A stretch of DNA of 64,000 nucleotides, from contig NZ_CP053439.1 in NCBI RefSeq assembly GCF_000769405.2, positions 1,674,001 to 1,738,000 of the forward strand. The letters are read 5' to 3'. This stretch comes from Rhizobium brockwellii (lineage in GTDB: Bacteria > Pseudomonadota > Alphaproteobacteria > Rhizobiales > Rhizobiaceae). Both the position numbers and the translations under genes were made by a program. The notes under the pieces are model-generated. The model saw only the letters and a program-made list of their open reading frames with translations, searched no databases and had not been told where the DNA came from. Shown piece after piece: positions 1,271 through 40,987 of the stretch (its first letter is position 1; each line of letters starts with the position of its first letter).

Positions 1271-1439
1271 GTCGTCCCCGTCCTTTTGCGGGTCCGCGAA
1301 GCGCGGCCCTGGATCGGGGATGAGTAGGAGAGGCAGAAATCATGGCTTGACAACAACCATGATGTGGTCGTCGTACTGTGGCGTACAAAGACAAGGAAAC
1401 GGCGGAATGGCGGAATACTTGCGGCAGACGCAGCCGTGA

Positions 1440-1874
1440 TTATTCCGCGTCATGCGCGGGCGCGATGTCTTCCGAAATCTCTTGCCGAAGCTTCGGCCCG
1501 TGAGCGAGTCGGCGGCCGAGCGCGGTGACGAACGCCTCGTAGCGCTCGCCGGCTTTGGCGCGCGCCGCAGTCTGGGCAGGCTCCGGTAGCGGCGGGTTCG
1601 TCGTCAGCCAGAAGCGGATGAAGACGGCCAGCGTTTCGACGGCGATGCCAAGGTCGCGCTCCATGCGTGCCATCCGCCGGTCGAGCTGATCGAGCCGCTT
1701 CGTCGTCGCCGCCTCCTGCCGTTCGGAGGCGTCAGGCGAGAGGAAAGAGGCGATGCCGGCTTCCGCGATCAGGGAGAGGGATTGATCGCGCCGGGCGGCG
1801 TGCGCGGCGAGCGCTTTCATGACGTCCGGTTCGAGATACACGGATAGCCGCTGCTTTTTGGGAGGCTTTGCCAT
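1440..1874 (-). CDS. CopG-like ribbon-helix-helix protein of the transfer region
   Basis: A 144-residue protein. Its first 45 residues (PPKKQRLSVYLEPDVMKALAAHA) look like a ribbon-helix-helix DNA-binding fold: a basic strand followed by two helices. A charged, probably helical segment with Arg-rich heptads follows (RLDQLDRRMARMERDL). Such proteins sit between traG and trbB in related ICEs and are usually annotated CopG-family regulators, possibly nicking accessory factors or trb repressors. It starts 8 bases after the traG stop, so it is probably in the traG transcript. The exact role is inference; the fold is fairly clear. Confidence 0.8.
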   Translation of the reverse strand: MAKPPKKQRLSVYLEPDVMKALAAHAARRDQSLSLIAEAGIASFLSPDASERQEAATTKRLDQLDRRMARMERDLGIAVETLAVFIRFWLTTNPPLPEPAQTAARAKAGERYEAFVTALGRRLAHGPKLRQEISEDIAPAHDAE

Positions 1875-1882
1875 GGTGCCTC

Positions 1883-3868: not shown

Positions 3869-3893
3869 GGCGGGCACTCCTTTCTTGATTGGG

Positions 3894-5630: not shown

Positions 5631-5874
5631 GGCCGAGGCCCCGCACATCGTGCAAAGCCAAGGAAATCCTTGCAGAAATCGCGATAGCGCAGGCTGCGCC
5701 GATCAGGCGCACCTCGCGCAAATGCGCCATAAGTCTCTGAAAACACACGACCGCACCAAGCCGCACATCGCGCGCTTTTATCTCGCCATCGTTCGGTTGT
5801 GCTGCCTGCTTTTCCCGCCTCTGACGCCAACTCCACGCCAGAACCCGACAATGCCGCATGGAGTGCGAAGCCAC
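5631..5874. other. Candidate oriT region upstream of relaxase
   Basis: This non-coding stretch lies between the relaxase and lytic transglycosylase genes, a common place for oriT. It contains a perfect inverted repeat CAAGGA-AA-TCCTTG near 5659-5672, whose right arm ATCCTTG resembles the ATCCTG nick region of IncP/VirD2-type oriTs, followed by several GCGC-rich short repeats. No functional evidence is available and the match is short, so this is only a pointer. Confidence 0.25.
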
Positions 5875-6639
5875 TCATCGCGGCCCCGCAGTATCAGTCC
5901 GCGCCACGAATAGGCCGTCCGATCGCGGTGCAGGCAGGTCCGGATCGCGAGCAGACTCCCGCGCAGAGGGTGCGGCCGGATCGCCGTCCCGCTGCCGCTG
6001 GACTGCACCCGCGCTGCTGTCGACCTGCACGATGAAGAGTGGCGCACGGGTCCAGGCGAGCGGATCGGCGGTCGCCACCGTGACGGGGGCAGCGAGATCG
6101 CCGCCGCCGATGATCGGTGCGAGGGCGGCGACATAGGCGCGTGTTTCGGCTGGCAACGGGCGGCCGGTCGCCCGATATTCCTCGTAGCGGCCGGGACCAG
6201 CGTTATAGGCCGCCAGAAAGCCGGGCGAGCCGTAGCGATCGTGCATCTCGCGCAGATACGCCGCGCCCGCCATGATGTTATCGCGCGGGTTGTAGGGGTC
6301 GTCGCCGAGACCATGTCGAGCGCGCAAATTCGCCCAGGTCGCGGGCATGATCTGCATCAGGCCCATCGCGCCGGCCGATGAGATGGCGCGCATGTCGCCG
6401 GCGCTTTCGACGCGCATGACCGCACGAATCCAATGTTCGGGAACGCCAAATCGTCGCGCAGCCTCGGCGATCAAGACGGCGTAGGGATCGACGCGAGAGA
6501 GGCGTTCGCCCGACACGGTCTGTGCATTCGCGTCGGCGCAAAGCGGCGCGGCGGTCAGCAGGCCGGAAAGGAGAAGGAAGGCTGTGCGCCGGACGGTGGA
6601 ATGCCGGCCGGCGACAGCGGGATGGCGGCGGGCCGACAT
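5875..6639 (-). CDS. VirB1-like lytic transglycosylase
   Basis: Opens peptidoglycan for assembly of the transfer apparatus. The 254-residue precursor has a basic N-terminus and hydrophobic core (AFLLLSGLLTAAPL) with a likely cleavage after ANA at about 39, so it is exported. The SLT domain shows the catalytic Glu in RVESAG (E78), the GLMQIMP motif and AYNAGPG. After about residue 165 the sequence is low-complexity and Pro/Asp/Arg-rich. It starts 3 bases after the DUF736 stop, so it belongs to the same transcript. Confidence 0.92.
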   Translation of the reverse strand: MSARRHPAVAGRHSTVRRTAFLLLSGLLTAAPLCADANAQTVSGERLSRVDPYAVLIAEAARRFGVPEHWIRAVMRVESAGDMRAISSAGAMGLMQIMPATWANLRARHGLGDDPYNPRDNIMAGAAYLREMHDRYGSPGFLAAYNAGPGRYEEYRATGRPLPAETRAYVAALAPIIGGGDLAAPVTVATADPLAWTRAPLFIVQVDSSAGAVQRQRDGDPAAPSARESARDPDLPAPRSDGLFVARTDTAGPR

Positions 6640-6642
6640 CGC

Positions 6643-6981
6643 TCAGTCCCGCTCGCTGCGCCGAGGCGGGCGGTTCCAGTGCAGACCCCAGTCGGACTTG
6701 TCGTCGGCCGACTGGAACAGGTTAGCGCGGACAGGCTGGCTGAAGGTCGGATCGTCTATCTGCAACGAAACGTACTCGCCGGCCTTCTCACCGGTGCGCT
6801 TCCAGCCCGCTCCAACTTCGGGACCGTCCTCATCCGATCCGAGATGGACGCGGTAGTCGGGCGCGTTCTCCGTGTCGGATTGCTCTACCGGCACGAGCAC
6901 CAACTCGGCGTCGAGCGTGAGCGTTCTGAGCCGCCCGGCATAGCCCGATTTGGTGCGGCTGAATTGACCGATTAGGGACAT
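6643..6981 (-). CDS. DUF736 family protein (copy 1)
   Basis: A 112-residue soluble protein of the DUF736 family, which occurs almost only on alphaproteobacterial plasmids and ICEs and has no proven function. It begins MSLIGQFSRTKSGYAG and contains the family's features: LTLDAEL, ENAPDYRVHLG, GAGWKRTG, YVSLQIDDPTF and RANLFQ. The start at 6981 has a GGAGAC ribosome site, and a start four codons earlier was rejected for lacking one. It sits between traF and the transglycosylase. A second member lies at 12,186-12,509. Confidence 0.9.
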   Translation of the reverse strand: MSLIGQFSRTKSGYAGRLRTLTLDAELVLVPVEQSDTENAPDYRVHLGSDEDGPEVGAGWKRTGEKAGEYVSLQIDDPTFSQPVRANLFQSADDKSDWGLHWNRPPRRSERD

Positions 6982-27707: not shown

Positions 27708-27825
27708 CGTTGCGGGTCTCCCGCAGAAGGGGTCGGTCGAGACCGCAGGGCTCGGACGCAGGGGAAGGCTTTCCCCAAAAAGCTGTGGGCTCAATTCTGC
27801 GGCAATTGTCGAGTGTCGATTATCA

Positions 27826-27848
27826 CTATAGGGTTCCGCTATAGGGTT
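27826..27848. promoter_or_regulatory. Tandem CTATAGGGTT repeats, candidate operator of the defence operon
   Basis: CTATAGGGTT occurs at 27,826-27,835 and again at 27,839-27,848, a 13-base period, about 20 bases before the start of the XRE-type gene at 27,869. The TATA-like sequence could include the -10 region. Direct repeats at a promoter next to an HTH gene suggest autoregulation, much as restriction-modification control proteins act. No binding data exist. Confidence 0.5.
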
Positions 27849-27868
27849 TAAAGCGAGTCGATTGGGCG

Positions 27869-28171
27869 ATGCATCCAGGATCAGTGGTTCGGCAGGAATG
27901 CCTCGAAAAGCACGGGCTGAGCGTGACCGACGCAGCACGCGTTCTTGGCGTGGATCGGCAGACCCTCAGCAACTTGCTGAACGCGCGATCGGGCATCTCG
28001 CCTGAAATGGCGATCCGGCTTGAGAAGGCGTTCGGGTTGCCGGCCCGCGAGTGGTTGATGCGTCAACTCGATCACGAACTGGCCGAGGCGATGCACAAGG
28101 CCGACGGCATTGACGTCCAACCGTTCGCTGGCACCCCGCACGACAGACAGGGCGCTCATGAACGCGGTTGA
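27869..28171 (+). CDS. XRE/HigA-like regulator heading the defence operon
   Basis: A 100-residue protein of the HigA-type XRE family: a helix-turn-helix at about 17-45 (LSVTDAARVLGVDRQTLSNLLNARSGISPEMAIRLEKAFG) and the characteristic AREWLMRQLDHELAEA helix. HigA proteins are antitoxins, but no toxin gene is adjacent. Its 3' end overlaps the methyltransferase start by 14 bases, so it more likely works as a control protein, timing expression of the modification and restriction genes. Tandem repeats upstream are its probable operator. Confidence 0.8.
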   Translation: MHPGSVVRQECLEKHGLSVTDAARVLGVDRQTLSNLLNARSGISPEMAIRLEKAFGLPAREWLMRQLDHELAEAMHKADGIDVQPFAGTPHDRQGAHERG

Positions 28172-30911
28172 AATCGAAGAAGCCATCTCGGCGCTCGCGG
28201 AGCGGCCGTTCGACGCCGACGAGTTTCCCTACGCGTTTCTCGAGGCCTTCGGGAACAAGGAGACCACCCTTAAGCGCCTGCGCAAAGGCGAATCAAACAA
28301 GTCCGATCTGGGCGGCGTGCTTCAGACCAACAACATTCACATCGCTACCTGCAAGCCAGGTGAGGTGACGCGCACGCTCATAGCGTTGAAGACCAGCCCG
28401 GCTACGGCGCGGGCGAAGGCGCGCTTCGTGTTGGCGACCGACGGCGAGCTGTTCGAAGCCGAAGACCTAACGATCGACGATGCGCCGGTCTCGTGCACCT
28501 ATGCGGATTTCCCCAACCACTTCGGCTTCTTTCTACCGCTGGCTGGCATCACCACGGTCAAGCAGGTCCGCGAAAGCTCGTTCGACATTCGAGCGACCAG
28601 CCGCCTCAACCGGCTCTATGTCGAGCTGCTGAGGGACAACCCCGAATGGGGCACCGCGCAGCGCCGCCACGACATGAACCACTTTATGGCGCGATTGATC
28701 TTCTGCTTCTTCGCGGAGGATACCGACATCTTTAACGGCATCGGCGTTTTCACGTCGGCCATCGAGAAGATGAGCGCGAAGGGTTCGTCCAACACCCATG
28801 AGGTGATCAGCGAACTGTTCCGCGCTATGAACACGAAGGCAACGGAACGAGTTGCAGCGGGTATCCCGCGCTGGGCCGATGGCTTCCCCTATGTGAACGG
28901 CGGGCTGTTTTCCGGCAGCACGGATGTGCCGCGGTTCAGCCGCATCGCTCGGTCCTATCTGCTGCATATAGGCAGCCTGGATTGGAAGAAGATCAACCCG
29001 GATATTTTCGGTTCGATGATCCAGGCGGTGGCCGACGATGACGAGCGCGGCGCGCTTGGCATGCACTACACTAGCGTGCCGAACATCCTAAAGGTGCTGA
29101 ACCCGCTATTCCTCGATGATCTGCGCGAGAAGCTGGCGGAAGCCGGCGACAATGCACGCATGTTGCTCAACCTGCGCAAACGCATGTCGAAGATCCGTGT
29201 GTTCGATCCCGCCTGTGGCTCGGGCAATTTCCTTGTCATCGCCTACAAGGAGATGCGGGCTATCGAGGCGGAAATCAACCGCCTCCGTGATGAAGCCGAT
29301 CAACGCACGGAAATTCCTCTGACCAATTTTCGCGGGATTGAACTGCGCGATTTTCCGGCCGAGATCGCGCGCTTGGCGCTCATTATCGCCGAATACCAGT
29401 GCGATGTGCTCTATCGCGGCCAGAAAGAGGCCCTGCGAGATTTCCTGCCGCTTGATGCCCAGAACTGGATCACCTGCGGAAACGCCCTGCGGCTCGATTG
29501 GCTGAGCATCTGCCCGCCGACGGGAACGGGAGTGAGGCACCACGCCGACGATTTGTTTCATACGCCGCTCAATCAAGCGCAGATCGATTTCGAGAATGAG
29601 GGCGGCGAGACCTACATCTGCGGAAATCCGCCGTACATCGGCGGAAAGAAACAAAGTGCTGAACAGAAAAGCGACCTCGCTGCCATTTTTTCCGGGGGGC
29701 AGCATAAGAACTTAGATTACGTATGCGGGTTCGTTGTTAAAGCTTGCAGATTTATAGATTCATTTGACAAGGCTGCATTGGTTACTACTAATTCGATCAA
29801 TCAGGGCACCCATGTCCCCGTGCTCTGGCCGGAGGTTTTCCGAGCCAATTGCGAGCTTGAGTTTGCATACGCACCGTTCAAATGGGCGAACAACGCAGCG
29901 AACAACGCCGGAGTTTCCTGCACAATTTTGGGTTTGAGAGTACGGAAGCCGGGCGCAAAATACATCTATAACGGAAATACGCGGCGCGAAGTGTCCAATA
30001 TCAGTCCTTATCTCGTCGAGGGACCGGATCGGATCGTGCAGTCGGAAACGAAGCCGATTTCTGGTCTTTCCAAGATGATCACTGGCAATGCGGCATACGA
30101 CGGCGGTCACCTTTTTCTGGATAGCCATGAGGCCCAAGCACTTAGAGGCAGCTTCCCAGAAATTAGCGGCAACATCCGGCCTGTCCTGGGCACGTCGGAG
30201 TTCATTGACGGCATTTTGCGGTTTTGCCTTTGGTTTAACGACGACGAACTCGACTTCGCTGCCTCGCATCCCGCCGTGGCCCCTCGCATTGCATCTGTGC
30301 GCTCCTATCGCGAGACCGGTGGCGATGTCGCCAGGACATTAATTTCCCGTCCTCACCAATTCAGGTATCGACACGAAGCAACGCGCTGCCAAATACTTGT
30401 GCCGCAGGTATCGTCGGAGCGCAGAGAGTACTTGCCAGTTGGGTATATGAGCGGTGACGCTATAATAACGCATCTCGGACACGCGATTTACGATCCAACG
30501 TTAGTCGATCTGTCGGTGCTGAGTTCAAAGCTCCATTTGACGTGGGTCTCGACGATATGTGGGAAGCTGGAAACGCGACTGCGCTACGCTAGCAACCTGG
30601 GCTGGAATACGTTTCCGGTACCGATATTGACTGACAAGAACAGAGTGGACCTCATTCGCTGCGCAGAAAATATCCTGCTGGCCCGGGAGGCCCATTTCCC
30701 AGCGACGATCGCCGAACTTTATGATCCAGCGACCATGCCCGACGACCTCCGTGCAGCTCACGACCGTAACGACGAGGTGCTCGAGCGCATCTATATCGGC
30801 CGTCGATTCAAGAACGACACCGAAAGGCTTGAAAAGTTATTCGACCTTTACATCAAAATGATGACAGGATCGAGCAACGCCACCAAGCGACGTATGGCGG
30901 CGACAGCATGA
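28158..30911 (+). CDS. MmeI-like N6-adenine DNA methyltransferase
   Basis: A 917-residue methyltransferase of the class I, MmeI-like group. It has an N-terminal region of about 340 residues, including RRHDMNHFMARLIFCFFAEDTDIF, then the SAM-binding motif VFDPACGSGNF at about 347 and the catalytic NPPY (CGNPPYIGG) at about 487. A target-recognition region and helical C-terminus follow. No PD-(D/E)xK nuclease motif is visible in the N-terminus, unlike single-chain MmeI enzymes, so cutting is presumably done by other subunits. The ATG at 28,158 was chosen over one at 28,110 because it matches the family start and lies at the end of the regulator gene. Its stop overlaps the next gene by ATGA. DNA from about 29,650 to 30,700 is more AT-rich than the flanks. 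Confidence 0.9.
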   Translation: MNAVEIEEAISALAERPFDADEFPYAFLEAFGNKETTLKRLRKGESNKSDLGGVLQTNNIHIATCKPGEVTRTLIALKTSPATARAKARFVLATDGELFEAEDLTIDDAPVSCTYADFPNHFGFFLPLAGITTVKQVRESSFDIRATSRLNRLYVELLRDNPEWGTAQRRHDMNHFMARLIFCFFAEDTDIFNGIGVFTSAIEKMSAKGSSNTHEVISELFRAMNTKATERVAAGIPRWADGFPYVNGGLFSGSTDVPRFSRIARSYLLHIGSLDWKKINPDIFGSMIQAVADDDERGALGMHYTSVPNILKVLNPLFLDDLREKLAEAGDNARMLLNLRKRMSKIRVFDPACGSGNFLVIAYKEMRAIEAEINRLRDEADQRTEIPLTNFRGIELRDFPAEIARLALIIAEYQCDVLYRGQKEALRDFLPLDAQNWITCGNALRLDWLSICPPTGTGVRHHADDLFHTPLNQAQIDFENEGGETYICGNPPYIGGKKQSAEQKSDLAAIFSGGQHKNLDYVCGFVVKACRFIDSFDKAALVTTNSINQGTHVPVLWPEVFRANCELEFAYAPFKWANNAANNAGVSCTILGLRVRKPGAKYIYNGNTRREVSNISPYLVEGPDRIVQSETKPISGLSKMITGNAAYDGGHLFLDSHEAQALRGSFPEISGNIRPVLGTSEFIDGILRFCLWFNDDELDFAASHPAVAPRIASVRSYRETGGDVARTLISRPHQFRYRHEATRCQILVPQVSSERREYLPVGYMSGDAIITHLGHAIYDPTLVDLSVLSSKLHLTWVSTICGKLETRLRYASNLGWNTFPVPILTDKNRVDLIRCAENILLAREAHFPATIAELYDPATMPDDLRAAHDRNDEVLERIYIGRRFKNDTERLEKLFDLYIKMMTGSSNATKRRMAATA

Positions 30912-31684
30912 GCGACTATGTGTTGTTCCAGATGTGGGATCCATTTCGGCAGTCTCTGATTGCCGGCCACCTCTTCTATGTCGAGCAAGCGAGAAGGCGC
31001 TTGCTCTCGCAGTTTGAAGACATCGAGTCCGAAGCCGACAAGGCTGCCGAAGAATGGCTTCAGCGAAGTAGCGGAAGGTTTGATCCTGATCGGCATGATG
31101 CTGGCGACCTCTACGAAGCTGCCAACGACGCCGGTATTGAGTTCTATACTCTTCTCAGTGACATGCGAGACCAGACGCGCTTGAGCGTCGTCGCGGGTAT
31201 GTTCCATGAATGGGACAAGCAACTGCGCGATTGGCTGGTACGAGAAATTCAGCATTGGCACCGAGGTGACGCCGCCGCGCTCAAAGTGTGGTCGGCTGAC
31301 TTCGTGCAGATCGCCGAATTGTTGGAAAGCATTGGGTGGGAAGTGCGTAGCACGGACTACTTCAAAACGCTTGATGCGTGCCGTCTTGTTGTTAACGTCT
31401 ATAAGCACGGTAAGGGGAAGTCACTTGAGGATCTCAAGCAAAAGTATCCTGAATATTTCGATGACCCGTTTCACGGCGCCGCGTTCTCAAGCGTGGAGTA
31501 TCGCGACCACACGCATCTAAAGGCGAGCGACGAGCAGTTTCAAGCATTTTCAGATGCGATCGTCGCGTTCTGGCAAGCGGTGCCAGAGAACATATTCGAT
31601 TCAAAGATCGATGACGTGCCCGACTGGTTCGGCAAGGCCATCCTGAAAGACCGCACCGGCCACAAACAGGCGAGCAAGCAATGA
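30908..31684 (+). CDS. Unrecognised protein of the defence operon with a KHG motif
   Basis: A 258-residue soluble, helix-rich and acidic protein. I do not recognise its family. The conspicuous part is CRLVVNVYKHGKGKSLEDLKQKYPEYF at about 158-184; N(x)nKHG segments with an upstream Arg occur in HEPN-like domains of RNases and Abi proteins, though the usual R-x4-6-H spacing is not exact here (R then H eight residues on). It overlaps the methyltransferase by ATGA at its start and the helicase by ATGA at its end, so it is made in fixed proportion with both. Likely an adaptor or effector subunit, by context only. Confidence 0.8.
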   Translation: MSDYVLFQMWDPFRQSLIAGHLFYVEQARRRLLSQFEDIESEADKAAEEWLQRSSGRFDPDRHDAGDLYEAANDAGIEFYTLLSDMRDQTRLSVVAGMFHEWDKQLRDWLVREIQHWHRGDAAALKVWSADFVQIAELLESIGWEVRSTDYFKTLDACRLVVNVYKHGKGKSLEDLKQKYPEYFDDPFHGAAFSSVEYRDHTHLKASDEQFQAFSDAIVAFWQAVPENIFDSKIDDVPDWFGKAILKDRTGHKQASKQ

Positions 31685-33741
31685 TCGATAATACGCCAAA
31701 ATCAGTCCCCTCCGTTTCGGTTAAGTATGCCAGCAACGGCAGCTCGACCAAGGCGAACGAGTTCGGCATGCGGCCTATGCAGGAGCGCGCCTTCGAGAAG
31801 CGGGGCGAGCAATATCTGCTGATCAAGTCACCGCCAGCCTCGGGCAAGAGCCGCGCATTGATGTTTATCGCGCTCGACAAGCTGACCAATCAGAGCGTCA
31901 AGCAAGCCATCGTCGTCGTGCCGGAAAGATCCATCGGCTCTAGCTTCCATGACGAGCCGCTGAGCAAGCATGGCTTCTGGGCGGACTGGCACGTCGAGCC
32001 GATGTGGAATCTCTGTGACGCGCCCGGTAACGACAATGGCGGCAAGGTCAATTCGCTCGGCGCGTTCCTTGAAAGCGACGACAAGGTGCTAGTCTGCACC
32101 CATGCGACATTCCGCTTCGCCGTCGACAAATTCGGGATCGGAGCTTTTGATGACCGGCTGATCGCGGTGGACGAATTCCACCACGTCTCGGCTAATCCCG
32201 AAAACAAGCTCGGCATCCATCTGGGCGATTTGATCACCCGCGACCGCGTGCATATCGTCGCGATGACCGGATCCTACTTCCGGGGCGACGCCGAGGCGGT
32301 GCTGGCGCCGCAGGACGAAGGCAGGTTTGAGAGCGTCACTTACACCTATTATGAGCAGCTCAACGGCTATCAGTATCTGAAGCAGCTCGACATCGGTTAT
32401 TTCTTCTATTCGGATTCCTACGCCGACGACATTCTGAAGGTGTTGAATCCGACAGAGAAGACGATCATCCACATACCGAACGTGAACTCGCGCGAGAGCA
32501 CGAAGGACAAGATCAAAGAAGTTGAGCACATCATCGAGGAGCTGGGCACGTGGCAGGGCACCGATCTCTCCACGGGGTTTCAACTGGTCAAGACGCCGGA
32601 AGGCCAGATACTGCGCATCGCTGATCTCGTCGATGACGATTCAGTCAAGCGGGATCGCGTGTCCGCCGCGCTGAAAGACCCTACGCAGAAGAACAACCGC
32701 GATCACGTCGACATCATCATTGCGCTCGGAATGGCAAAGGAAGGCTTCGACTGGATCTGGTGCGAACATGCGCTGACGGTTGGCTACCGCTCCAGCCTGA
32801 CCGAGATCGTGCAGATCATTGGCCGCGCCACCCGTGATGCACCGGGCAAGACCCGCGCCCGCTTCTCAAACCTGATTGCCGAGCCTGCCGCCGCCGACGA
32901 CATCGTGACCGAAGCGGTGAACGACACGTTGAAAGCGATCGCGGCAAGCCTACTGATGGAGCAGGTGTTGGCTCCTCGCTTCGAGTTCAAGCCGAAGAAT
33001 CCGCAAAACGAGCCGACGCCTGGCTTCGACTATGGTGAGGGCGGCTACGATCCGAATAAGTGCAACGTCGGCTTCAACGAGGAATCCGGCAAGTTCCAGA
33101 TCGAGATCAAAGGCCTTGCGACGCCCAAGAGCGAGGAAGCGACGCGGATCTGCCAAGAGGACCTGAACGAGGTGATCGCTGCCTTCGTGCAGGATAAGAC
33201 GACGATCGAGCGCGGCCTCTTCGACGAGGAACTCGTCCCCGAGGAACTGACCCAGGTGCGCATGGGTAAGATCATCAAGGACAAGTTCCCGCATCTCGAC
33301 GCGGAGGATCAGGAGGCCGTGCGTCAGCATGCTGTGGCGGCGTTGAATCTGACCCAGAAGGCCAAGGAAGTCGCGGCGGGCAGCTCGCTCGGCGAGGAGA
33401 GTGCGAATACCGCCTTTGTCGATGGTGTGCGCAAGTTCGCGATGGACGTGCGCGAGTTGGACATCGACCTGATCGACCGGATCAATCCGTTCGGGGAGGC
33501 CTATGCGATCCTCGCCAAGACGATGAGTGAGGAAAGCTTGAAGCAGGTCGCCGCGGCGATTGCCGCCAAGCGGACCAGCCTGACTCCCGAAGAGGCGAAG
33601 GTGATCGCCAAGCGCGCCGTTGAGTTCAAGCGGGAGCGGGGGCGGCTGCCATCGATCAGCTCGGCCGACGCTTGGGAGAAGCACCTAGCTGAAGGCGCTG
33701 CCGCGTTCGTCCGCTTCAAGGACGAGGGTCGCTATGAGTGA
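31681..33741 (+). CDS. DExH-box superfamily 2 helicase of the defence operon
   Basis: A 686-residue helicase. Motif I reads PPASGKSRA at about 51-59, motif II VDEFHH at about 163-168, motif III-like MTGSYFRGD at about 193-201, and motif VI QIIGRATRDAPGKTRAR at about 378-394. The C-terminal 280 residues have no recognised domain and are rich in charged helices (EEAKVIAKRAVEFKRERGRL). No nuclease motif is visible, so it resembles the translocating motor of type I/III restriction enzymes with cleavage supplied by the next gene. It overlaps its upstream neighbour by ATGA and the GIY-YIG gene by 8 bases. Confidence 0.9.
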   Translation: MIDNTPKSVPSVSVKYASNGSSTKANEFGMRPMQERAFEKRGEQYLLIKSPPASGKSRALMFIALDKLTNQSVKQAIVVVPERSIGSSFHDEPLSKHGFWADWHVEPMWNLCDAPGNDNGGKVNSLGAFLESDDKVLVCTHATFRFAVDKFGIGAFDDRLIAVDEFHHVSANPENKLGIHLGDLITRDRVHIVAMTGSYFRGDAEAVLAPQDEGRFESVTYTYYEQLNGYQYLKQLDIGYFFYSDSYADDILKVLNPTEKTIIHIPNVNSRESTKDKIKEVEHIIEELGTWQGTDLSTGFQLVKTPEGQILRIADLVDDDSVKRDRVSAALKDPTQKNNRDHVDIIIALGMAKEGFDWIWCEHALTVGYRSSLTEIVQIIGRATRDAPGKTRARFSNLIAEPAAADDIVTEAVNDTLKAIAASLLMEQVLAPRFEFKPKNPQNEPTPGFDYGEGGYDPNKCNVGFNEESGKFQIEIKGLATPKSEEATRICQEDLNEVIAAFVQDKTTIERGLFDEELVPEELTQVRMGKIIKDKFPHLDAEDQEAVRQHAVAALNLTQKAKEVAAGSSLGEESANTAFVDGVRKFAMDVRELDIDLIDRINPFGEAYAILAKTMSEESLKQVAAAIAAKRTSLTPEEAKVIAKRAVEFKRERGRLPSISSADAWEKHLAEGAAAFVRFKDEGRYE

Positions 33742-34933
33742 TCTCGGCCTTGATGAACTGCGTGCGGAGCTCGACGATTTCGCGCAACCTGAAAAGAAGG
33801 GCGGCCGTTCGCCCCAGGAGGAGCGCATCATCGCGGGCTTTGAGGAGATTCAGCGCTTCGTCGAGAAAAACGGCCACGCTCCAAGCCACGGCGAGGATGG
33901 CGACATACTTGAACGGCTCTATGCCGTTCGGCTCGACCGACTGCGCGCTCTCGAAGAGTGCCGGTCCGTCCTTGCGCCCCTTGATAACCGGGGGCTGTTG
34001 ACGGGCGCGCCGGTCACGTCTTCTGCGCCGCCGGACACAATGGACGACGATGAGCTGCTTGCCGAACTGGAAGGTGCTGCGGGTTCATCTGACATCACCA
34101 AGCTGCGCCACGTGCGCACCAGCGCCGAAAAGCGCGAGGCCGAAGAAATCGCGAGCCGGGAAAAGTGCCCCGATTTCGAAACGTTCAAACCGCTATTCGA
34201 ACAGGTACAGAGTGACCTCGAAAGGGGGCTCCGCACCACAAGGCCGTTCGTCAAGGATGCCGGGTTCCTCAAGGCCGACGTTCAGGCGGGCCAGTTCTTC
34301 ATCCTTGGCGGCCAGACCGCCTATGTCGCCGAGGTCGGAGAGACGATAAAGGCGCCGAACGGCGAAACCGACGCGCGGCTCAGGGTTATCTACTCCAATG
34401 GCACCGAAAGCGACCTGCTGCTGCGGTCGCTCCAGCGCGCACTTTATAAAGATGAGGCTGGCCGGCGGATCACCGAGCCGAGCGCCGGACCATTGTTCGA
34501 CGACCAGACTGGCGATGGCGATCAAGCGAGCGGAACGATTTACGTGTTGCGCAGCAAAGCCGACCATCCGTTGGTCGCTGCGAACCGTGAAATCCTGCAC
34601 AAGATCGGTGTGACGGGCGGCAGCGTGGAGCGGCGTATCGCCAACGCTCGCCTCGATCCAACCTACCTCATGGCCGATGTCGAGATCGTCGCTACTTACG
34701 AGCTTTACAACGTCAACCGCGGGAAGCTTGAAACCTTGATCCACAAGGTCTTTGGCGCGGCGCGGCTGGATGTCGAGATCAAGGATCGCTTCGGCCAGCC
34801 GATCGTGCCTAAGGAGTGGTTCTTGGTGCCACTATTTGCCGTCGATGAGGCGGTGAGCCGGATCAGAGACGGAACGATCACCGGACACGTTTATGATCCG
34901 AAAACTGCCCGTTTGGTCCGTTTAGAACGTTGA
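33734..34933 (+). CDS. GIY-YIG (T5orf172-type) nuclease of the defence operon
   Basis: A 399-residue protein. The N-terminal 265 residues are charged and contain a beta-rich segment (GQFFILGGQTAYVAEVGETI, RLRVIYSNGTESDLLLRSLQRALY) of a kind seen in several GIY-YIG proteins. The C-terminal GIY-YIG fold runs TIYVLRS (about 267), KIGVTGGSVERRIANA (about 288-303) and ELYNVNRGKLETLIHKVF, with a final WFLVPLFAVDEAVSRI. This is the T5orf172/Mug113-like branch. It is the only visible nuclease in the operon. It ends the operon and converges with the 3' end of the next module, overlapping it by 43 bases. Confidence 0.88.
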   Translation: MSDLGLDELRAELDDFAQPEKKGGRSPQEERIIAGFEEIQRFVEKNGHAPSHGEDGDILERLYAVRLDRLRALEECRSVLAPLDNRGLLTGAPVTSSAPPDTMDDDELLAELEGAAGSSDITKLRHVRTSAEKREAEEIASREKCPDFETFKPLFEQVQSDLERGLRTTRPFVKDAGFLKADVQAGQFFILGGQTAYVAEVGETIKAPNGETDARLRVIYSNGTESDLLLRSLQRALYKDEAGRRITEPSAGPLFDDQTGDGDQASGTIYVLRSKADHPLVAANREILHKIGVTGGSVERRIANARLDPTYLMADVEIVATYELYNVNRGKLETLIHKVFGAARLDVEIKDRFGQPIVPKEWFLVPLFAVDEAVSRIRDGTITGHVYDPKTARLVRLER

Positions 34934-35727
34934 CTTCCCGAACGTGATTGCCTGGGCCCTTCCTGACCTGCTCGGTCGAGGCTCGGAGATGATCTCGAAC
35001 TTGCCGGGCTGATTGTTGGGAGCCAGAGGTGCCAGACGGCTATTGATCCTGGGTCGTCTCTCGGAGCGGTGCGCGTCGGATAACGAAATGCCCGTCCATG
35101 GCGCGATCTTGCCAAATCAAGTAAGGGAACCCCGCCCGAAGCGGGCAATTCCTCGATGGCATAGGGTTGCGGGCGCCGCTGTTGGCTTGCGATAAGGAAG
35201 GGCGAGAGTGCTGAAGTGATCGTCGAGTTGTCTCGGACATATCCAAGCATGAACGCTTCGCGCGTGGCCCAGGCGTACTCTCCGGTGAGAAAGCGCTTCA
35301 GGCCGTTGTCACAATACAGATCGTGACCCTTTCGAGTTGCGGCGTCGATAAGCTTGCATTCAACAACTAGCGGGAAAGCAGGTGTTCTGGCCGACAGGTG
35401 TATCGAAATATCGGGTCGCTTTTCCAGATGACTGCCGTCGTAGCTGAGGGTTTCCTTACCTCTCGTGACCGTGCGGACCAGTTGCTCCCAGATTGGATGC
35501 TCTTCAAGCATCTGCGTAAGTCGCGTTTCCATCAGCGCATTGACCTCGGCCTCGGACCCGGTCAGCAGCGTCGTTGCTTGAGTGCGACTGAGTTCTGCCC
35601 ATGCTGCCGCGAGCACTTCGGCGATTACGGTAAGATGCTCGTCGTGGAGCGCCGCGAAGGGTAGTTCCAACCCTCGGGTCAATTCGTCAATCTGATTGAG
35701 GCGGGGCGACGAGGCTAAAGAGGTCAC
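34891..35727 (-). CDS. PD-(D/E)xK restriction endonuclease-like protein
   Basis: A 278-residue protein with a clear nuclease core: RPDISIHL (Asp about 106) and VVECKLI (Glu 123, Lys 125), the PD-(D/E)xK pattern. It is coupled to the upstream methyltransferase (GTG start at 35,727, GTGA overlap), so it is probably the cutting partner of a type II-like system. After HLWLP (about 235) the sequence becomes Ser/Arg/Gly-rich and looks out of character; the native stop may have been lost near 35,020, with the frame running on into the end of the GIY-YIG gene. That tail is inferred to be an artefact of module joining. Confidence 0.8.
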   Translation of the reverse strand: MTSLASSPRLNQIDELTRGLELPFAALHDEHLTVIAEVLAAAWAELSRTQATTLLTGSEAEVNALMETRLTQMLEEHPIWEQLVRTVTRGKETLSYDGSHLEKRPDISIHLSARTPAFPLVVECKLIDAATRKGHDLYCDNGLKRFLTGEYAWATREAFMLGYVRDNSTITSALSPFLIASQQRRPQPYAIEELPASGGVPLLDLARSRHGRAFRYPTRTAPRDDPGSIAVWHLWLPTISPASSRSSPSLDRAGQEGPRQSRSGSQRSKRTKRAVFGS

Positions 35728-38700
35728 GCGGTCTCTCGCCCCTTCAAAATATCCATGTGTTCCCAGGCAACCCGCTGGGCGACTTGTCTCGCCTGGCTTT
35801 CCGACCAGTAGCGTGCTTGATCAAGGCGACCGAGGCATAGACAACCGGCTTCATCGACAAATGAGACCTCTGTCGCTGCGAAATGGTCAGCCAGCGGCAG
35901 GAATTTGTGCCAGTTTAGGCTCGTCCCATCAGCGGCGAGGCCGCTTCTACCGCTCGAGCTTATACACAAAGTTCGCCAGGGCGATGCGTCGAGGCGTCTG
36001 GCAGGCTTTGCCTCAATGGCTCGTCCGAAGCGCTTGGCCCATGGCTTAAGCTCGACATTAAGCACGGCGCAAAAATCTTGCACGGCTTGTTCGCTAGGTT
36101 GTGCCTGTGCTCGGTTCCTATTCTTAGCGAAGGGTAGATTGAATTCGAGAGTATCCAGGATAACTTGAAGGTCGCGTGAGCGCAGGCCGTAGAGAGTTGC
36201 GACCCACTCATCGATATTAGCCCAAGCGTCCTCTTCACCCGACTGAGCGCCCTCGAACAAGCGATCGAGGTCGATCCGATCACTGGCTGACAGGTCTTCG
36301 AGCGTCGGGATCAGCAAGCCATCGATTGTAGCTTTTTCAATAGTGTCACGTTCAAAACCGAACTCGCCGCTCGTGATCAGTACCTGCCAAAGAGCGACTT
36401 TGCTGCCGATGAGTAAGCTGAGATATCGGGCAAGTGTGCTGCCCTCCTGGTGATGACGCGCACTGTAGCCATAGAAGCTCGTGTTAAAGACTGCGTCACT
36501 CAACGTGACGGCGGTCTTTATTCTTCCGATTGCCGCCGGTGGGGCTTTTTGAACCACAAGGAGGGGGCCCTCGAACAAGGAACGCGGCCGCGGATCGTGG
36601 ATTCGCTCGTGTTTGAACAGTGGAAGCTGACTGGCATCGACAAGGATGCTCGACATCGATTCGGATGAAATTTCGTGCAAATCATGAAGGTATTTGGCCG
36701 AGACACCGGGGAGACCGTCGCCGTTCTTGCGAACGCGGCTGCTCTTGCGCAGGTTTTGATATCCATTACCGGCATACTTCGCGCGACCCGCTTCAGACCC
36801 GAAGAGTTGGCGCCAATAGTCACCTAGTCTGAGCGGCGTCTGAACCCTTATGCGATCGTAGACTTGAAGATCTGCCCTAGTGCCGCGGAACAGGGTCTTC
36901 AAAATTTCCGGTCTCTCTGCGATCTCGTCGGAGGTGACCATCTCCGCGTTTGCAGCGTCGATACGCATGCTCCCCGCGCTATTTAGCGAGCCTTCGAGCC
37001 TGGGACTGACCAACCGAAATCCGGCCCCTTGGGGCGGAACCTGGTTTCTTGCGTAAAGAATGCAGAAGGGCGCGGCAATCTCTGGCCAGACGCGCGTCTG
37101 TCGCAGCTCGACGCCATTCACGATTGCGGTGACGTCGAGCGCGCGGAACAGAGCGCGGCGAGCATCCTGCATGCCGTCACCTTGCTGGAACAACACGCGG
37201 GCGTGCAGTGCAAACACGATCTGGCCCTGCGGTTTTGCCCACTCCATCGCTCTCCATACGAACGGTAGGTCGAGCACCTCATTGGGAATAGGTGGGGGAG
37301 GAACTTCCGCAGGGAGACGGGTTCGCGCTATTCGCTTGATGATCGATTGTACCTCGCCCCAATTTGGAAGTTGCGTTGCACTTGCCCAGGGCGGATTGCC
37401 GATCACCAAGTCGTACCGATTTACATGCTCATCGCCGACGTTCGGTCCGAGGCTTCCCAAGCTTCGCTCGGCGCTGGTTTCATCACCCACCTTCAGCAAG
37501 ACGCGGTCACGCAGATTCTCAAACCTGAGTTTCCGAACAGGCTCGGGGTGGGGGTCCAGTTCGATTGAAATCAAATAGAGGCCCAGTGCTGCAAATCGAA
37601 GCGCAGCCTCGTTGATGTCGAAGCCGGTTATCTGGTCATAAAGGATCCGGCGAAGCACTTCAGTTTCAGGCCGAGCGCCATCGCGCCGCCAGCGTTCAGC
37701 GACAAGCTGACGGAAAGCGGTGAGGAGGAAGACGCCTGCTCCTGCAGCAGGGTCAAGAATGCGCGCGTCAGCGGCGTGTCCATCGCGCGCTAGTGCGCCA
37801 AGTGCCCCTCTGACCATCAGGTCGGCAATTGGCCGAGGGGTATAATAGCCGCCTTCGCGCCGTTGACGTTCTGGTGCATGCCGATGCAAATAATGCTCAT
37901 AGGCTTGGCTGAGCACGCCTACCGGAATGTGCGCGAAATCTAAGTTGTCCCAGCGTTCCGCCCAACCGAGAAATAGTTGGCCGTCCGGTGCTCGGCGTAA
38001 AATATCTCCCAGAACCTTGAACGCCTCGGGAGGTAGCTGCTTGTAGATCCCCGAAGACATCGGCAAAAAATCACCGTTAAAGGTCGAGTCCAACCACTCG
38101 GACGTTGCTTCCGCTCGCCTTATGTCATCGAACAGTTCAGCTGCGCCGTGGGCGTCTACGCCGAGTGGCCCCAGCAAATGACGGTCGCCAAGGAAGCGCG
38201 TGAAGAGCGCACGTCCGACTAGCGAGATGGCGTCATCATCGCCGACGCTACAATTTTCCTTAAGAGTATCGATGGAGGAACTCAGAAGTTTAAGAACGAC
38301 CTGCGAAATCCATTGCCGCTGGCCGGTTGGCAGCCCGGGGCGCGCGTTGGCCAAGTGGGCAAAGGTCGCGATCTCTTGCCCTTCGGGGATGCCGACAGTG
38401 ACTTGCGCCTGCTCGGGTGAACAGGAATCTAAACCAACGTGATATACGTCCAAACGCCCTGGTCTGACGACGCCGAGATAGGGGGCATCGCCGCGCATAG
38501 CGATGAGGCGTCGGATCCTGTGCAATCGCTGATGGTCGTCCTGGAGCCGATCATCGGCCACCAAGAATATCAGCGGAGTGTTCTGCCACTCGTAGACTGC
38601 ACCGATCGCTTGTAAATCTTCGTTCCCGCCCTCTCGGGCAGTGAGAAGGGTCGCGTAAGGCAGCAAATCGGGACCATCGACGTCCAGTAACCGCAACGCG

Positions 38701-38762
38701 GCCTCGTCTGCCCCATATCGCCTAAGCTCCTGACCGAGTCTGTTTTTCACTATTGTGGTCAT
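35724..38762 (-). CDS. Eco57I-like N6-adenine DNA methyltransferase
   Basis: A 1,012-residue methyltransferase. The N-terminal 320 residues contain a beta-rich part that may be an N-terminal nuclease-like or HTH domain without clear motif. The SAM site LDPAAGAGVFLL lies at about 331-342 and the catalytic NPPW (LVIGNPPWAS) at about 454, as in Eco57I-type enzymes; the C-terminal half would be the target-recognition region. The ATG at 38,762 was chosen; a TTG at 38,786 would overlap the antitoxin stop. It shares a GTGA junction with the downstream nuclease. Confidence 0.88.
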   Translation of the reverse strand: MTTIVKNRLGQELRRYGADEAALRLLDVDGPDLLPYATLLTAREGGNEDLQAIGAVYEWQNTPLIFLVADDRLQDDHQRLHRIRRLIAMRGDAPYLGVVRPGRLDVYHVGLDSCSPEQAQVTVGIPEGQEIATFAHLANARPGLPTGQRQWISQVVLKLLSSSIDTLKENCSVGDDDAISLVGRALFTRFLGDRHLLGPLGVDAHGAAELFDDIRRAEATSEWLDSTFNGDFLPMSSGIYKQLPPEAFKVLGDILRRAPDGQLFLGWAERWDNLDFAHIPVGVLSQAYEHYLHRHAPERQRREGGYYTPRPIADLMVRGALGALARDGHAADARILDPAAGAGVFLLTAFRQLVAERWRRDGARPETEVLRRILYDQITGFDINEAALRFAALGLYLISIELDPHPEPVRKLRFENLRDRVLLKVGDETSAERSLGSLGPNVGDEHVNRYDLVIGNPPWASATQLPNWGEVQSIIKRIARTRLPAEVPPPPIPNEVLDLPFVWRAMEWAKPQGQIVFALHARVLFQQGDGMQDARRALFRALDVTAIVNGVELRQTRVWPEIAAPFCILYARNQVPPQGAGFRLVSPRLEGSLNSAGSMRIDAANAEMVTSDEIAERPEILKTLFRGTRADLQVYDRIRVQTPLRLGDYWRQLFGSEAGRAKYAGNGYQNLRKSSRVRKNGDGLPGVSAKYLHDLHEISSESMSSILVDASQLPLFKHERIHDPRPRSLFEGPLLVVQKAPPAAIGRIKTAVTLSDAVFNTSFYGYSARHHQEGSTLARYLSLLIGSKVALWQVLITSGEFGFERDTIEKATIDGLLIPTLEDLSASDRIDLDRLFEGAQSGEEDAWANIDEWVATLYGLRSRDLQVILDTLEFNLPFAKNRNRAQAQPSEQAVQDFCAVLNVELKPWAKRFGRAIEAKPARRLDASPWRTLCISSSGRSGLAADGTSLNWHKFLPLADHFAATEVSFVDEAGCLCLGRLDQARYWSESQARQVAQRVAWEHMDILKGRETA

Positions 38763-38782
38763 GTTTTTACGTGCCGCACAGC

Positions 38783-39181
38783 TCAACCCGCCTTCGCGGC
38801 GAGCTTTCCAGCGGCTCCGCTCTTTGTGCGACTATGCGTTCTCGACTTGCCCGAAACAGGGGCGGATCCGATGTCGCCGAGGCTCTGAAGGCGGATCGCC
38901 GCCCGGGCGGGAAGCCTGACTACAAGTTCCAAATTGCCCCCGACGGCTTCGACATAGCTGCGTAGCGTCGAGAGATACATGTCGGCCTGCTTCTCTATCT
39001 TGGAGACCGACGGCTGCTTTATATTAAGCGCGGTGGCGATCTCGGCCTGCGCCTTGCCGGCGATCTGGCGCAACTCGCGCAGACCCTCAACCTCCTGCTT
39101 CAGGTCCCGATACCGCGCGTTGATCGCCGCCTGCTCTTCCGCAGGCAGCGCGGCGATTAACTCATCCAGGCTCCGGCCCAT
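38783..39181 (-). CDS. HigA-type XRE antitoxin
   Basis: A 132-residue protein with an XRE helix-turn-helix (LRQIAGKAQAEIATALNIKQPSVSKIEKQAD) and the YLSTLRSYVEAVGGNLELVV strand-helix of HigA-2 antitoxins. The C-terminus is a basic Ser/Arg/Lys/Ala-rich tail. It follows the HigB-like toxin gene by one base, the toxin-first order typical of higBA. It also directly precedes the Eco57I-like methyltransferase, so it could repress the restriction genes as well. Confidence 0.88.
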   Translation of the reverse strand: MGRSLDELIAALPAEEQAAINARYRDLKQEVEGLRELRQIAGKAQAEIATALNIKQPSVSKIEKQADMYLSTLRSYVEAVGGNLELVVRLPARAAIRLQSLGDIGSAPVSGKSRTHSRTKSGAAGKLAAKAG

Positions 39182-39182
39182 C

Positions 39183-39548
39183 TTACATTCCCTTCTTCGC
39201 GGCTTTCAGGCTTTCCAGATGCAGGGAAAACCGCAAATCCGCTTTCGCGATAAGCTGCTTGTAGAAGCGCTTCTGGCTACCGCCAGATTTATCACCCGCC
39301 ACCAGCAGGATTGCCTTCCTCTCCGGGTCGAAGGCGAAGGCGGCACGCCATTCGCCATCAGAGGCCCCGAAGCGCATTTCTTTCATGTTGGCGTGCCTTG
39401 ACCCTTTGAGCGTGTCGACGTGCGGGCGACCAAGCTGTGGGCCATAATCGGCAAGCAGCTTGGCGATCGCCAGCAATTCGGTTTGCACCCCTTGCTCGAA
39501 GGCCAGAAACTCCACCTCAAAGGCGTCATCAAGTCTAACTTCCCACAT
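39183..39548 (-). CDS. HigB/RelE-type mRNA-interferase toxin (Gp49-like)
   Basis: A 121-residue protein of the phage-derived Gp49-like HigB family: MWEVRLDDAFEVEFLAF, the LGRPHVDTLKGSRHANMKEMRF core, EWRAAFAFDPERKAILLVAGDK, and a C-terminal FYKQLIAKADLRFSLHLESLK. Such toxins cleave mRNA on the ribosome unless bound by their antitoxin, encoded next. A palindrome lies seven bases upstream of its start. Toxin-antitoxin pairs stabilise ICEs and may also guard the defence island. Confidence 0.88.
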   Translation of the reverse strand: MWEVRLDDAFEVEFLAFEQGVQTELLAIAKLLADYGPQLGRPHVDTLKGSRHANMKEMRFGASDGEWRAAFAFDPERKAILLVAGDKSGGSQKRFYKQLIAKADLRFSLHLESLKAAKKGM

Positions 39549-39733: not shown

Positions 39734-40987
39734 TCAGGCCGCCTGTTTCAGCGTGCCGCTGCCTTTCTTCTTAGTCAGCAGCATCCGGGCGAACTTGTCC
39801 CACTTTGCCATCGCCGCGCGCTTCTCCGGCATGTAGTTCCATCGGTCATAGCTCTTGGAGCTGACGTCCTGCAGCGTGTGGTTCTGCAAGCGATCCCGGA
39901 TCTCCTTGGACAGGCCGGCTTTGCCAGCGAGCGTTTTCCATGTCCGCCGCAGATCGCGGTTTGTCACGTATGGGATGACCTCGCGGTCCCGCTGGCGCCA
40001 CATGAACGAATAGAGGGTTCCGTGGCTCACCGGCTTGGACGGATCGGTGGCCGAGGGGAAGAACCAGCCATGAGCGTTGGGTGTGATTGACTCGATGAGT
40101 TCGGCGGCGATTTTCGGCACTGGGATCGCGTGGGGTTTCCCGTTTTTAGTCTTCGACCAGTCGATGATGCGTTCTCTCGCGTCCCATTGATCGACGTGCA
40201 GGCGTGCTATCTCCTCGACACGCTGTCCCGTCAGCATCAGAATTCTGACCGCGCGGGTGTATGGCGGATGCACTGGGGCATCGGGGCATTCGAGCCAGCG
40301 GTAAAGACGAAGGAACTCATCCTCGTCCAGCCAGCGCGTTCCGACCTTCTTGGGTTCCGTCGGTATGCCCGCAGCAGGATTGTAGACCAGACGGAAGCGT
40401 CGCGCGGAGACCGAGCGGTAGTCGTGCTCAGATTTCAGGCCCCAGCTGAAAGCCGATCGGATGTAGCTTCGCACATGATCCGCCATCGATCGCTTGCCGC
40501 GTTCATAGATGGGGCGGAGGATGGCGGTGATCTCGTCCGGTTCGATGTCGCGGGCAGGGCGATTCCGCCCGAGCGTGTCGGCGATCTTGTTGAGCCCTTT
40601 CTCTGCCTCCTTCCAGGACGACTTCCCCGCGTCCTTTAGATAGGCGACGTACGCTTCGAAGAGATCAGCCACGGTGCCTGGCCGCGTGTCGCCGGCGATC
40701 TTGATGCTGCGGCCCTTCTGGATCATGTCCGCGAAGTCGCGGCTGAATACCTCTCGCGCCTTGCTGAGCGGCATCGAGGGATATGACCCGAGCTTCTTTT
40801 TGATGCGCTTTTGATCGCGCCACTGCTGGGCCATCCAGTCGGCAGTGATGCGGGTGGGCATCGGCTTCATCACAAGGATGAGGCGCCCGGTTCCATGTCC
40901 TTCGCCATCGACGAGGCTGAGCTGTTTTCCGGTCTGCTCGACCTCTTTCAGGGCGCGGCGAATTTCTCCATCGGTAAGGCTTGGCAC
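39734..40987 (-). CDS. int: ICE tyrosine integrase
   Basis: A 417-residue tyrosine recombinase that inserts and excises the ICE. An arm-binding/DUF4102-like N-terminus (KKLGSYPSMPLSKAREVFSRD) is followed by a core-binding domain (about 105-210) and the catalytic domain: Arg 256 (TGQRVEEIARL), Lys in WSKTKNGKPHAIPV (about 279-284), the NRDLRR box (344-347), His 370 in LQNH and nucleophile Tyr 380 in KSYDRW. It is the last gene before the radC junction and points into the element, as expected for an ICE end. Target preference for radC is inferred from position only. Confidence 0.95.
   Translation of the reverse strand: MPSLTDGEIRRALKEVEQTGKQLSLVDGEGHGTGRLILVMKPMPTRITADWMAQQWRDQKRIKKKLGSYPSMPLSKAREVFSRDFADMIQKGRSIKIAGDTRPGTVADLFEAYVAYLKDAGKSSWKEAEKGLNKIADTLGRNRPARDIEPDEITAILRPIYERGKRSMADHVRSYIRSAFSWGLKSEHDYRSVSARRFRLVYNPAAGIPTEPKKVGTRWLDEDEFLRLYRWLECPDAPVHPPYTRAVRILMLTGQRVEEIARLHVDQWDARERIIDWSKTKNGKPHAIPVPKIAAELIESITPNAHGWFFPSATDPSKPVSHGTLYSFMWRQRDREVIPYVTNRDLRRTWKTLAGKAGLSKEIRDRLQNHTLQDVSSKSYDRWNYMPEKRAAMAKWDKFARMLLTKKKGSGTLKQAA

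What the first reader, a model, noticed from the sequence alone, without database searches (positions are those of the whole stretch)
27826..34933. Candidate undescribed defence operon: XRE regulator, MmeI-like methyltransferase, unknown KHG protein, DExH helicase, GIY-YIG nuclease
Five genes overlap head to tail (14, 4, 4 and 8 bases), so they are made together. The methyltransferase has SAM and NPPY motifs but no visible nuclease motif; the helicase has motor motifs but no nuclease; the only cutting domain is the C-terminal T5orf172-type GIY-YIG. That division of labour resembles type I/III restriction, yet there is no separate specificity subunit, no HsdR-type nuclease and no match to BREX, DISARM, Druantia or Zorya gene sets as I know them. 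It sits on a mobile element next to a second restriction module. A GIY-YIG nuclease driven by a helicase, licensed by methylation, is the inferred working model.
Basis: partly seen in the sequence, partly recalled or inferred. Interest (0 to 1): 0.82.

Follow-up and report, generated by a model that had tools for sequence, protein, structure and literature searches.

The report
Restriction operon with swappable guard slot
A bacterial gene cluster that probably tags its own DNA and destroys unmarked invading DNA proves to be a widespread, already glimpsed three-gene system, with an apparently interchangeable slot in which a different helper gene, possibly a last-resort toxin, can be plugged in.

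Summary
The five genes and their 14/4/4/8-base overlaps are real, but the unit is not five genes. Of 80 helicase-selected genome loci, 78 have the MmeI-like methyltransferase upstream and 79 the GIY-YIG gene downstream; the 3 misses lie within 1.1 kb of a contig end. This core is the published DnmA-YeeB-YeeC cluster, already suggested to be type I-like restriction, with phage phenotypes reported in Vibrio crassostreae but none in B. subtilis. So 'undescribed' fails for the core.

Not found in print: the methyltransferase/helicase junction is a cargo slot. It is closed in 33 of 78 loci and holds 399 bases or more in 45; the helicase/GIY-YIG junction is open in 0 of 79. Cargo includes KHG (7 of 78), RhuM, YhcG, BrnT, SLFN/AlbA, PLD-like and Tmn-like genes. 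KHG entered repeatedly and also occurs without the core. Its model most resembles HEPN toxins, but the HEPN motif is degenerate. The recognition domain swaps on a conserved chassis. XRE is an optional regulator with a conserved upstream element.

Best reading: type I-like restriction whose slot carries interchangeable guard or effector genes. Guard function is inferred.

The parts
27806..27827 (+). Conserved upstream element TTGTCGAGYGTCGATTRTCACT (AGYG-N8-CACT), probable XRE operator/promoter
   Evidence: Found in 12 of 141 loci: the 10 relatives found with an XRE gene at least 70% identical, plus two copies of the window itself; once in the 7.1 Mb genome with up to 2 mismatches; 0 expected by chance in the window
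27869..28171 (+). XRE/HigA-type regulator, 100 aa (TIGR02607 over cut-off); optional member
   Evidence: just upstream of the methyltransferase in 10 of 67 readable loci
28158..30911 (+). MmeI-like (DnmA-type) N6-adenine DNA methyltransferase with its own target recognition domain, 917 aa, without the MmeI nuclease motif
   Evidence: Five MmeI Pfam domains; PADLOC PDLC03598 896 bits, a model that rings only in B. subtilis among 14 control genomes at 1e-60; nuclease motif absent
30021..30626 (+). Target recognition domain of the methyltransferase (residues 622-823)
   Evidence: PF20466; 50-residue blocks of 501-800 are 29-46% identical to 67 relatives against 69-87% for residues 1-500
30908..31684 (+). 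KHG protein, 258 aa, cargo of the methyltransferase/helicase slot; HEPN-like predicted fold
31391..31411 (+). Conserved VNVYKHG motif (residues 162-168), place of the HEPN Rx4-6H motif with V instead of R
   Evidence: N163, K166, H167, G168 invariant in 39 of 39; N-x-x-K-H-G in 120 of 120 listed proteins, one of them the window's own, and in 7 of 7 KHG relatives found without the core; helix 150-167 ends at H167
31681..33741 (+). SF2 helicase/translocase (YeeB-type), 686 aa
   Evidence: Walker A, DEFHH, TGS and QIIGRATR motifs kept in at least 97% of 73 sequences, mean identity 82% over 72 relatives
33734..34933 (+). GIY-YIG nuclease protein (YeeC-type), 399 aa: helical N part, weakly SH3/Tudor-like middle, C-terminal T5orf172 GIY-YIG
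34532..34867 (+). GIY-YIG (T5orf172) domain, residues 267-378
   Evidence: PF10544; Y270, K290-x-G292, R301, E333, E361-W362-F363 invariant in 56 of 56
39734..40987 (-). Tyrosine integrase at the right end of the carrying element (context, not part of the system)
   Evidence: PF00589

Best explanation
[quoted passage not shown] The MmeI-like subunit reads an asymmetric site through its target recognition domain and methylates adenine on one strand. On foreign DNA, unmodified sites recruit or license the helicase, which moves along DNA using ATP and delivers the GIY-YIG nuclease, the only DNA-cutting domain found. One-strand methylation leaves one daughter helix unmarked after replication, so cutting should need two unmodified sites in a set orientation, as in type III and type ISP systems (inference). 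The KHG gene is not a core subunit: it sits in a cargo slot that opens only between methyltransferase and helicase and holds different genes in different genomes. I read KHG as a HEPN-like guard or effector, held inactive by the restriction complex and released when a phage blocks it, as PrrC is by EcoprrI. XRE is an optional regulator acting at 27806-27827. Shown: anatomy, conservation, slot, recognition-domain swaps, upstream element. Inferred: restriction, guard role, two-site rule.
Confidence: 0.6

Rival explanations
1. The cluster is a restriction relic: only the methyltransferase is active and acts as an orphan gene regulator.
For: This is the published conclusion for B. subtilis.
Against: Motor and GIY-YIG catalytic motifs kept in at least 97% of the 68-73 sequences aligned; all three genes open in the window; V. 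crassostreae deletions of dnmA and yeeB raise sensitivity to some phages (reported in PMC9973331, passage).
Confidence: 0.12
2. KHG and the other slot genes are not toxins but adaptor or specificity-modulating subunits of the restriction complex.
For: 4-base overlaps on both sides of KHG suggest translational coupling; HEPN motif of KHG degenerate; 8 of 17 cargo proteins scanned have no Pfam match at E 0.01.
Against: Cargo falls into families without mutual BLAST similarity and includes BrnT and Fic toxins and a Tmn-like ATPase; KHG is absent from 71 of 78 loci and also exists without the core.
Confidence: 0.2
3. The slot is a passive insertion hotspot: an internal junction at which selfish or unrelated defence genes settle because they then ride on the operon's transcript, with no functional link to the core.
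For: KHG, H277, H285 and others are scattered on the helicase tree about as in shuffles; KHG relatives occur without the core on plasmids.
Against: Of the two core junctions only this one is used (45 of 78 against 0 of 79), and 25 of 39 first cargo genes start at the methyltransferase's ATGA. Cargo strand is no evidence: families were assigned on the operon's strand only.
Confidence: 0.25
4. A type IIG (MmeI) enzyme with unrelated neighbours.
For: PADLOC labels the methyltransferase REase_MTase_IIG.
Against: The nuclease motif is missing in the window and 66 of 67 relatives, and out of register in the last; the helicase and GIY-YIG genes are constant neighbours in helicase-selected loci.
Confidence: 0.03

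Closest known systems
DnmA-YeeB-YeeC cluster of Bacillus subtilis and its relatives (PMC7261158, PMC9973331; passages)
   Same: MmeI-like methyltransferase without the nuclease motif, SF2 helicase next, T5orf172 GIY-YIG protein after it; same specific methyltransferase model
   Different: The window has a KHG gene in the methyltransferase/helicase junction and an XRE gene in front; the passages seen report neither a slot nor cargo families, though PMC9973331 notes an uncharacterized protein family near dnmA that could be a further member
Type I restriction-modification with embedded PrrC (EcoprrI)
   Same: Translocase-type restriction with a candidate guard gene inside the operon
   Different: No HsdS or HsdR; recognition domain fused to the methyltransferase; GIY-YIG nuclease as a separate protein; cargo is not PrrC and varies
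MmeI (type IIL)
   Same: All five MmeI Pfam domains; only solved relative 5hr4
   Different: Nuclease motif lost; cutting moved to a helicase plus GIY-YIG pair (inferred)
Type ISP (LlaGI, LlaBIII; recalled)
   Same: Methyltransferase and recognition domain joined to a translocase function
   Different: ISP enzymes are one polypeptide with a PD-(D/E)XK nuclease; here three proteins and GIY-YIG
HEPN-MNT toxin SO_3166 and HepS (that both are HEPN proteins is recalled)
   Same: Closest folds of the KHG model
   Different: KHG has V in place of the HEPN arginine; no MNT antitoxin among the operon genes

Membership tests
DnmA-YeeB-YeeC | MmeI-like methyltransferase lacking the PD-ExK motif | tested here: met
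DnmA-YeeB-YeeC | Methyltransferase fits the same specific profile as a B. subtilis protein | tested here: met
   PDLC03598 896 bits; rings in B. subtilis only, of 14 controls, at 1e-60; that the B. subtilis match is DnmA is inferred
DnmA-YeeB-YeeC | SF2 helicase and T5orf172 GIY-YIG genes downstream in this order | tested here: met
   KHG intervenes
DnmA-YeeB-YeeC | Direct alignment with YeeB and YeeC of B. subtilis | not tested
   No named B. subtilis sequence was obtained; the 120 rows name none
Type IIG/IIL (MmeI) | N-terminal PD-ExK nuclease in the methyltransferase polypeptide | tested here: not met
Type I R-M | Separate HsdS and an HsdR with nuclease | tested here: not met
   None among the five genes
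DISARM | DrmA and DrmB | tested here: not met
   ten proteins: only DrmMI matches of the methyltransferase, 82 bits against 896 for the type IIG model
BREX | PglZ and BrxC beside PglX | tested here: not met
   ten proteins: weak PglX only in the rows shown; PglX models far below cut-off
HEPN superfamily (KHG) | HEPN fold | tested here: inconclusive
HEPN superfamily (KHG) | Rx4-6H motif | tested here: not met
   V162-N163-x3-H167: H and the polar residue kept, R absent
HigBA (XRE) | HigA family protein | tested here: met
   TIGR02607 77 bits, cut-off 47.7
HigBA (XRE) | HigB toxin gene beside it | tested here: not met
   The two + frames of at least 70 aa in front of XRE (78 and 79 aa) match no Pfam family at E 1; behind it comes the methyltransferase

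The most novel reading that the evidence does not exclude
The DnmA-YeeB-YeeC restriction complex is a general plug-in socket: it physically restrains whatever effector gene product is encoded between methyltransferase and helicase (HEPN-like KHG, BrnT, Fic, YhcG, RhuM, Tmn-like and others) and releases it when the complex is disabled or unloaded. One conserved immune machine would then have two exchangeable parts, a target recognition domain that sets what is self and a slot that sets the punishment.
Probability: 0.25. Interest if true: 0.8.

Novelty: new variant of a known kind. Interest (0 to 1): 0.52.

Why it matters
Yet of its three proteins PADLOC 2.0 clearly recognises only the methyltransferase, as type IIG, and the published B. 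subtilis tests used a member that its authors think may have lost function. The slot offers some 16 cargo families (17 representatives, two of them BrnT, Fic seen only in a family genome) to test as guards against one constant core, which would make the old 'immunity coupled to suicide' hypothesis (PMC3506569) testable by simple swaps.

Tried and rejected

Paper searches for the slot or a named system: (open-licence PMC only). Papers were seen as passages only (PMC9973331, PMC7261158, PMC12707154, PMC3506569, PMC3710099; also PMC7251935, PMC6712171 and PMC12839542, which gave nothing used here).

Own errors: the census misplaced the minus-strand loci among L098-L106; one search replaces it. 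One search has the same flaw for those loci.
Full report
WHAT IS THERE. Pfam finds HTH_3 in the first protein, all five MmeI domains in the methyltransferase, DEAD/ResIII in the helicase and T5orf172/MUG113 in the last; the KHG protein has none. NCBIfam puts the first protein in the HigA family (TIGR02607, 77 bits, cut-off 47.7), but no HigB-like frame lies in front of it. PADLOC clearly recognises only the methyltransferase, as REase_MTase_IIG (PDLC03598, 896 bits); the helicase has weak PbeA matches, the GIY-YIG protein one at E 0.0094 and the KHG protein none. The window genome holds one copy.

NO NUCLEASE IN THE METHYLTRANSFERASE. The only solved relative at E 0.001 is MmeI, 5hr4; the alignment there starts after the nuclease motif. 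In an alignment of the window protein with 67 relatives, the stretch where PD-ExK should lie keeps D50 in 68 of 68 but no E-x-K in that register in any; a loose pattern search of the N-terminal region finds one chance match, in L086. This agrees with what PMC7261158 says of DnmA (passages).

THE CORE IS CONSTANT. A helicase search of genome contigs gave 554 relatives, of which the best 80 were kept. Of these 80, 78 have the methyltransferase upstream on the same strand and 79 the GIY-YIG gene downstream; the three exceptions have 1,074, 599 and 0 bases to the end of the contig. Of 10 stretches taken from family genomes, 9 have the methyltransferase (L103 lacks it with 2,371 bases readable) and 10 the GIY-YIG gene; of 27 viral contigs, 21 and 25 (of the 6 without a methyltransferase 4 begin at or inside the helicase, and the 2 without GIY-YIG have partial helicase matches). 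In a draw of 101 family genomes, own genome included, the helicase is in 10, the GIY-YIG protein in the same 10, the methyltransferase in 11 (9 of those 10, plus G020, a weak 32% match, and G089), and KHG in 2. In a draw of 385 genomes of the class KHG is in 2, the own genome and a 38% relative. The 80 loci were picked through the helicase and by likeness to the window, so they say little of helicase-free or distant relatives.

IT IS A KNOWN CLUSTER. B. subtilis DnmA is MmeI-like, lacks the nuclease motif and is followed by YeeB (SF2 helicase) and YeeC (T5orf172). PMC7261158 relates that Morgan and colleagues (2009; not held, not read) suggested a type I-like system. PMC9973331 finds helicase and GIY-YIG families at positions +1 and +2 of DnmA relatives, sees no phage phenotype in B. 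subtilis, calls it a relic, and cites V. crassostreae deletions that raise sensitivity to some phages (the Vibrio paper was not held). My sequence test: PDLC03598 at E 1e-60 rings in B. subtilis alone among 14 control genomes, whereas the broader MmeI_TRD model also rings in Deinobacterium. I did not align the helicase or GIY-YIG protein with YeeB and YeeC themselves.

SIGNATURE OF SPECIFICITY SWITCHING. Over 67 relatives, identity to the window methyltransferase is 69-87% in 50-residue blocks from 1 to 500, 29-46% from 501 to 800 and 72-83% from 801 to 900; the helicase averages 82% (72 relatives) and the GIY-YIG protein 66% (67 relatives) (of the 80 loci, 13, 8 and 13 gave no copy of at least 85% of the query's length and were dropped). 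Against L018 the window has helicase 96%, residues 1-500 91%, residues 501-800 34%. Of 2,278 pairs, 131 have residues 1-500 at least 85% alike, and 105 of these have the 501-800 region under 50%. Such swaps are expected of a system whose methyltransferase sets what is self.

THE SLOT. In the genome contigs the methyltransferase/helicase distance is two-peaked: -10 to -3 in 33 of 78 loci, nothing from 0 to 398, and 399 to 6,966 in 45. In the viral contigs it is less clean: 9 of 21 closed, 4 at 90-199 and 8 at 324 or more. The helicase/GIY-YIG distance is -20 to +15 in 79 of 79 genome-contig loci. Of the 45 open slots, 42 are assigned to representative families on the operon's strand and 3 are not: RhuM in 11, KHG 7, H277 6, H285 5 (named by length), BrnT 5, D137 4, YhcG, PLD and AlbA 3 each, and rarer ones including a Tmn-like ATPase. 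Pfam over its cut-offs confirms RhuM, YhcG/DUF1016, SLFN_AlbA_2, YobI-ATPase, BrnT and, in a family genome, Fic; the PLD matches are below cut-off. PADLOC lists the RhuM and YhcG proteins as candidates PDC-S05 and PDC-S02 and the ATPase as Tmn. Of 17 cargo proteins scanned (KHG not among them), 9 had a Pfam match at E 0.01 and 8 none. Gene calling on 71 loci gave 25 of 39 first cargo genes starting at the methyltransferase's ATGA; 9 of 80 loci were dropped there for want of a called gene.

EXCHANGE. On a quick helicase tree (73 tips, 71 with a state), slot contents change at least 36 times (shuffle mean 39.4; 1 of 1,000 shuffles as low). KHG needs 6 changes for 7 tips, the window included (shuffle mean 6.8; 197 of 1,000 as low), so it is scattered almost as if at random. 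RhuM is the exception, 2 changes for 11 tips (mean 10.4), and is clade-stable, in several loci with other cargo in front of it. Helicases 92-96% identical to the window's carry KHG, nothing, or H277. KHG relatives also occur without core genes in the stretch read: Nitrobacter plasmid (72%), a 6-kb viral contig (73%), and 37-46% relatives on Roseibium, Pantoea, Citrobacter and Klebsiella plasmids and in a viral contig.

REGULATION. An element TTGTCGAGYGTCGATTRTCACT ends 41 bases before the XRE start codon in the window and is present in 10 of 10 relatives found with an XRE gene at least 70% identical, in otherwise poorly alignable DNA; it is in no other locus of 141 except two copies of the window itself and once in the genome. 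L092, whose XRE gene is 37% identical, lacks it. XRE accompanies empty slots as well as several cargoes, so it looks like a regulator of the operon, not a partner of KHG.

VERDICT. A member of a known but poorly characterised restriction family, with a cargo slot that I did not find described in ten paper searches (listed under Tried and rejected; open-licence papers only).

Noticed in passing
window 34891-39548, minus strand: Second module: Gp49 (HigB-like) gene, HTH_37 gene one base behind it, then a 1020-aa N6 methyltransferase and a 278-aa protein, each overlapping the gene before it by 4 bases. The last has no Pfam family but a by-eye PD-(D/E)XK pattern (PDIS...VVECK). A toxin-antitoxin-like pair heads a restriction-like operon; its 3' end overlaps the GIY-YIG gene tail to tail by 43 bases.
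   Followed up: partly
window 1-40987: Conjugative integrated element: TrbB (TIGR02782 over cut-off), IncP-type TraG, RlxS-like relaxase (below that model's cut-off), RepA, ParA/ParB, strawberry-notch helicase, DUF932-like gene, tyrosine integrase; it runs off the left end of the window and ARAGORN finds no tRNA in the window.
   Followed up: partly
window 27826-27848: Direct repeat CTATAGGGTT twice, starts 13 bases apart (27826 and 27839), between the conserved upstream element and the XRE start codon.
   Followed up: no
L024, L026, L028, L034, L043, L071, L084, L089 (genome contigs): RhuM is mostly confined to one helicase clade and in these loci has a further, variable cargo gene between the methyltransferase and itself: a slot in front of an older cargo gene.
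   Followed up: partly
L068, L074, L079, L094: Broken methyltransferase (L068, L074, L079) or helicase (L094) reading frames, possible decaying copies or sequencing errors.
   Followed up: no
L014, L015, L139, L140, L141 (plasmids): KHG relatives without the restriction core on plasmids, in one case just after an AbiEii-type gene (L139): a possible free-standing plasmid gene family (134 plasmid records match KHG).
   Followed up: partly
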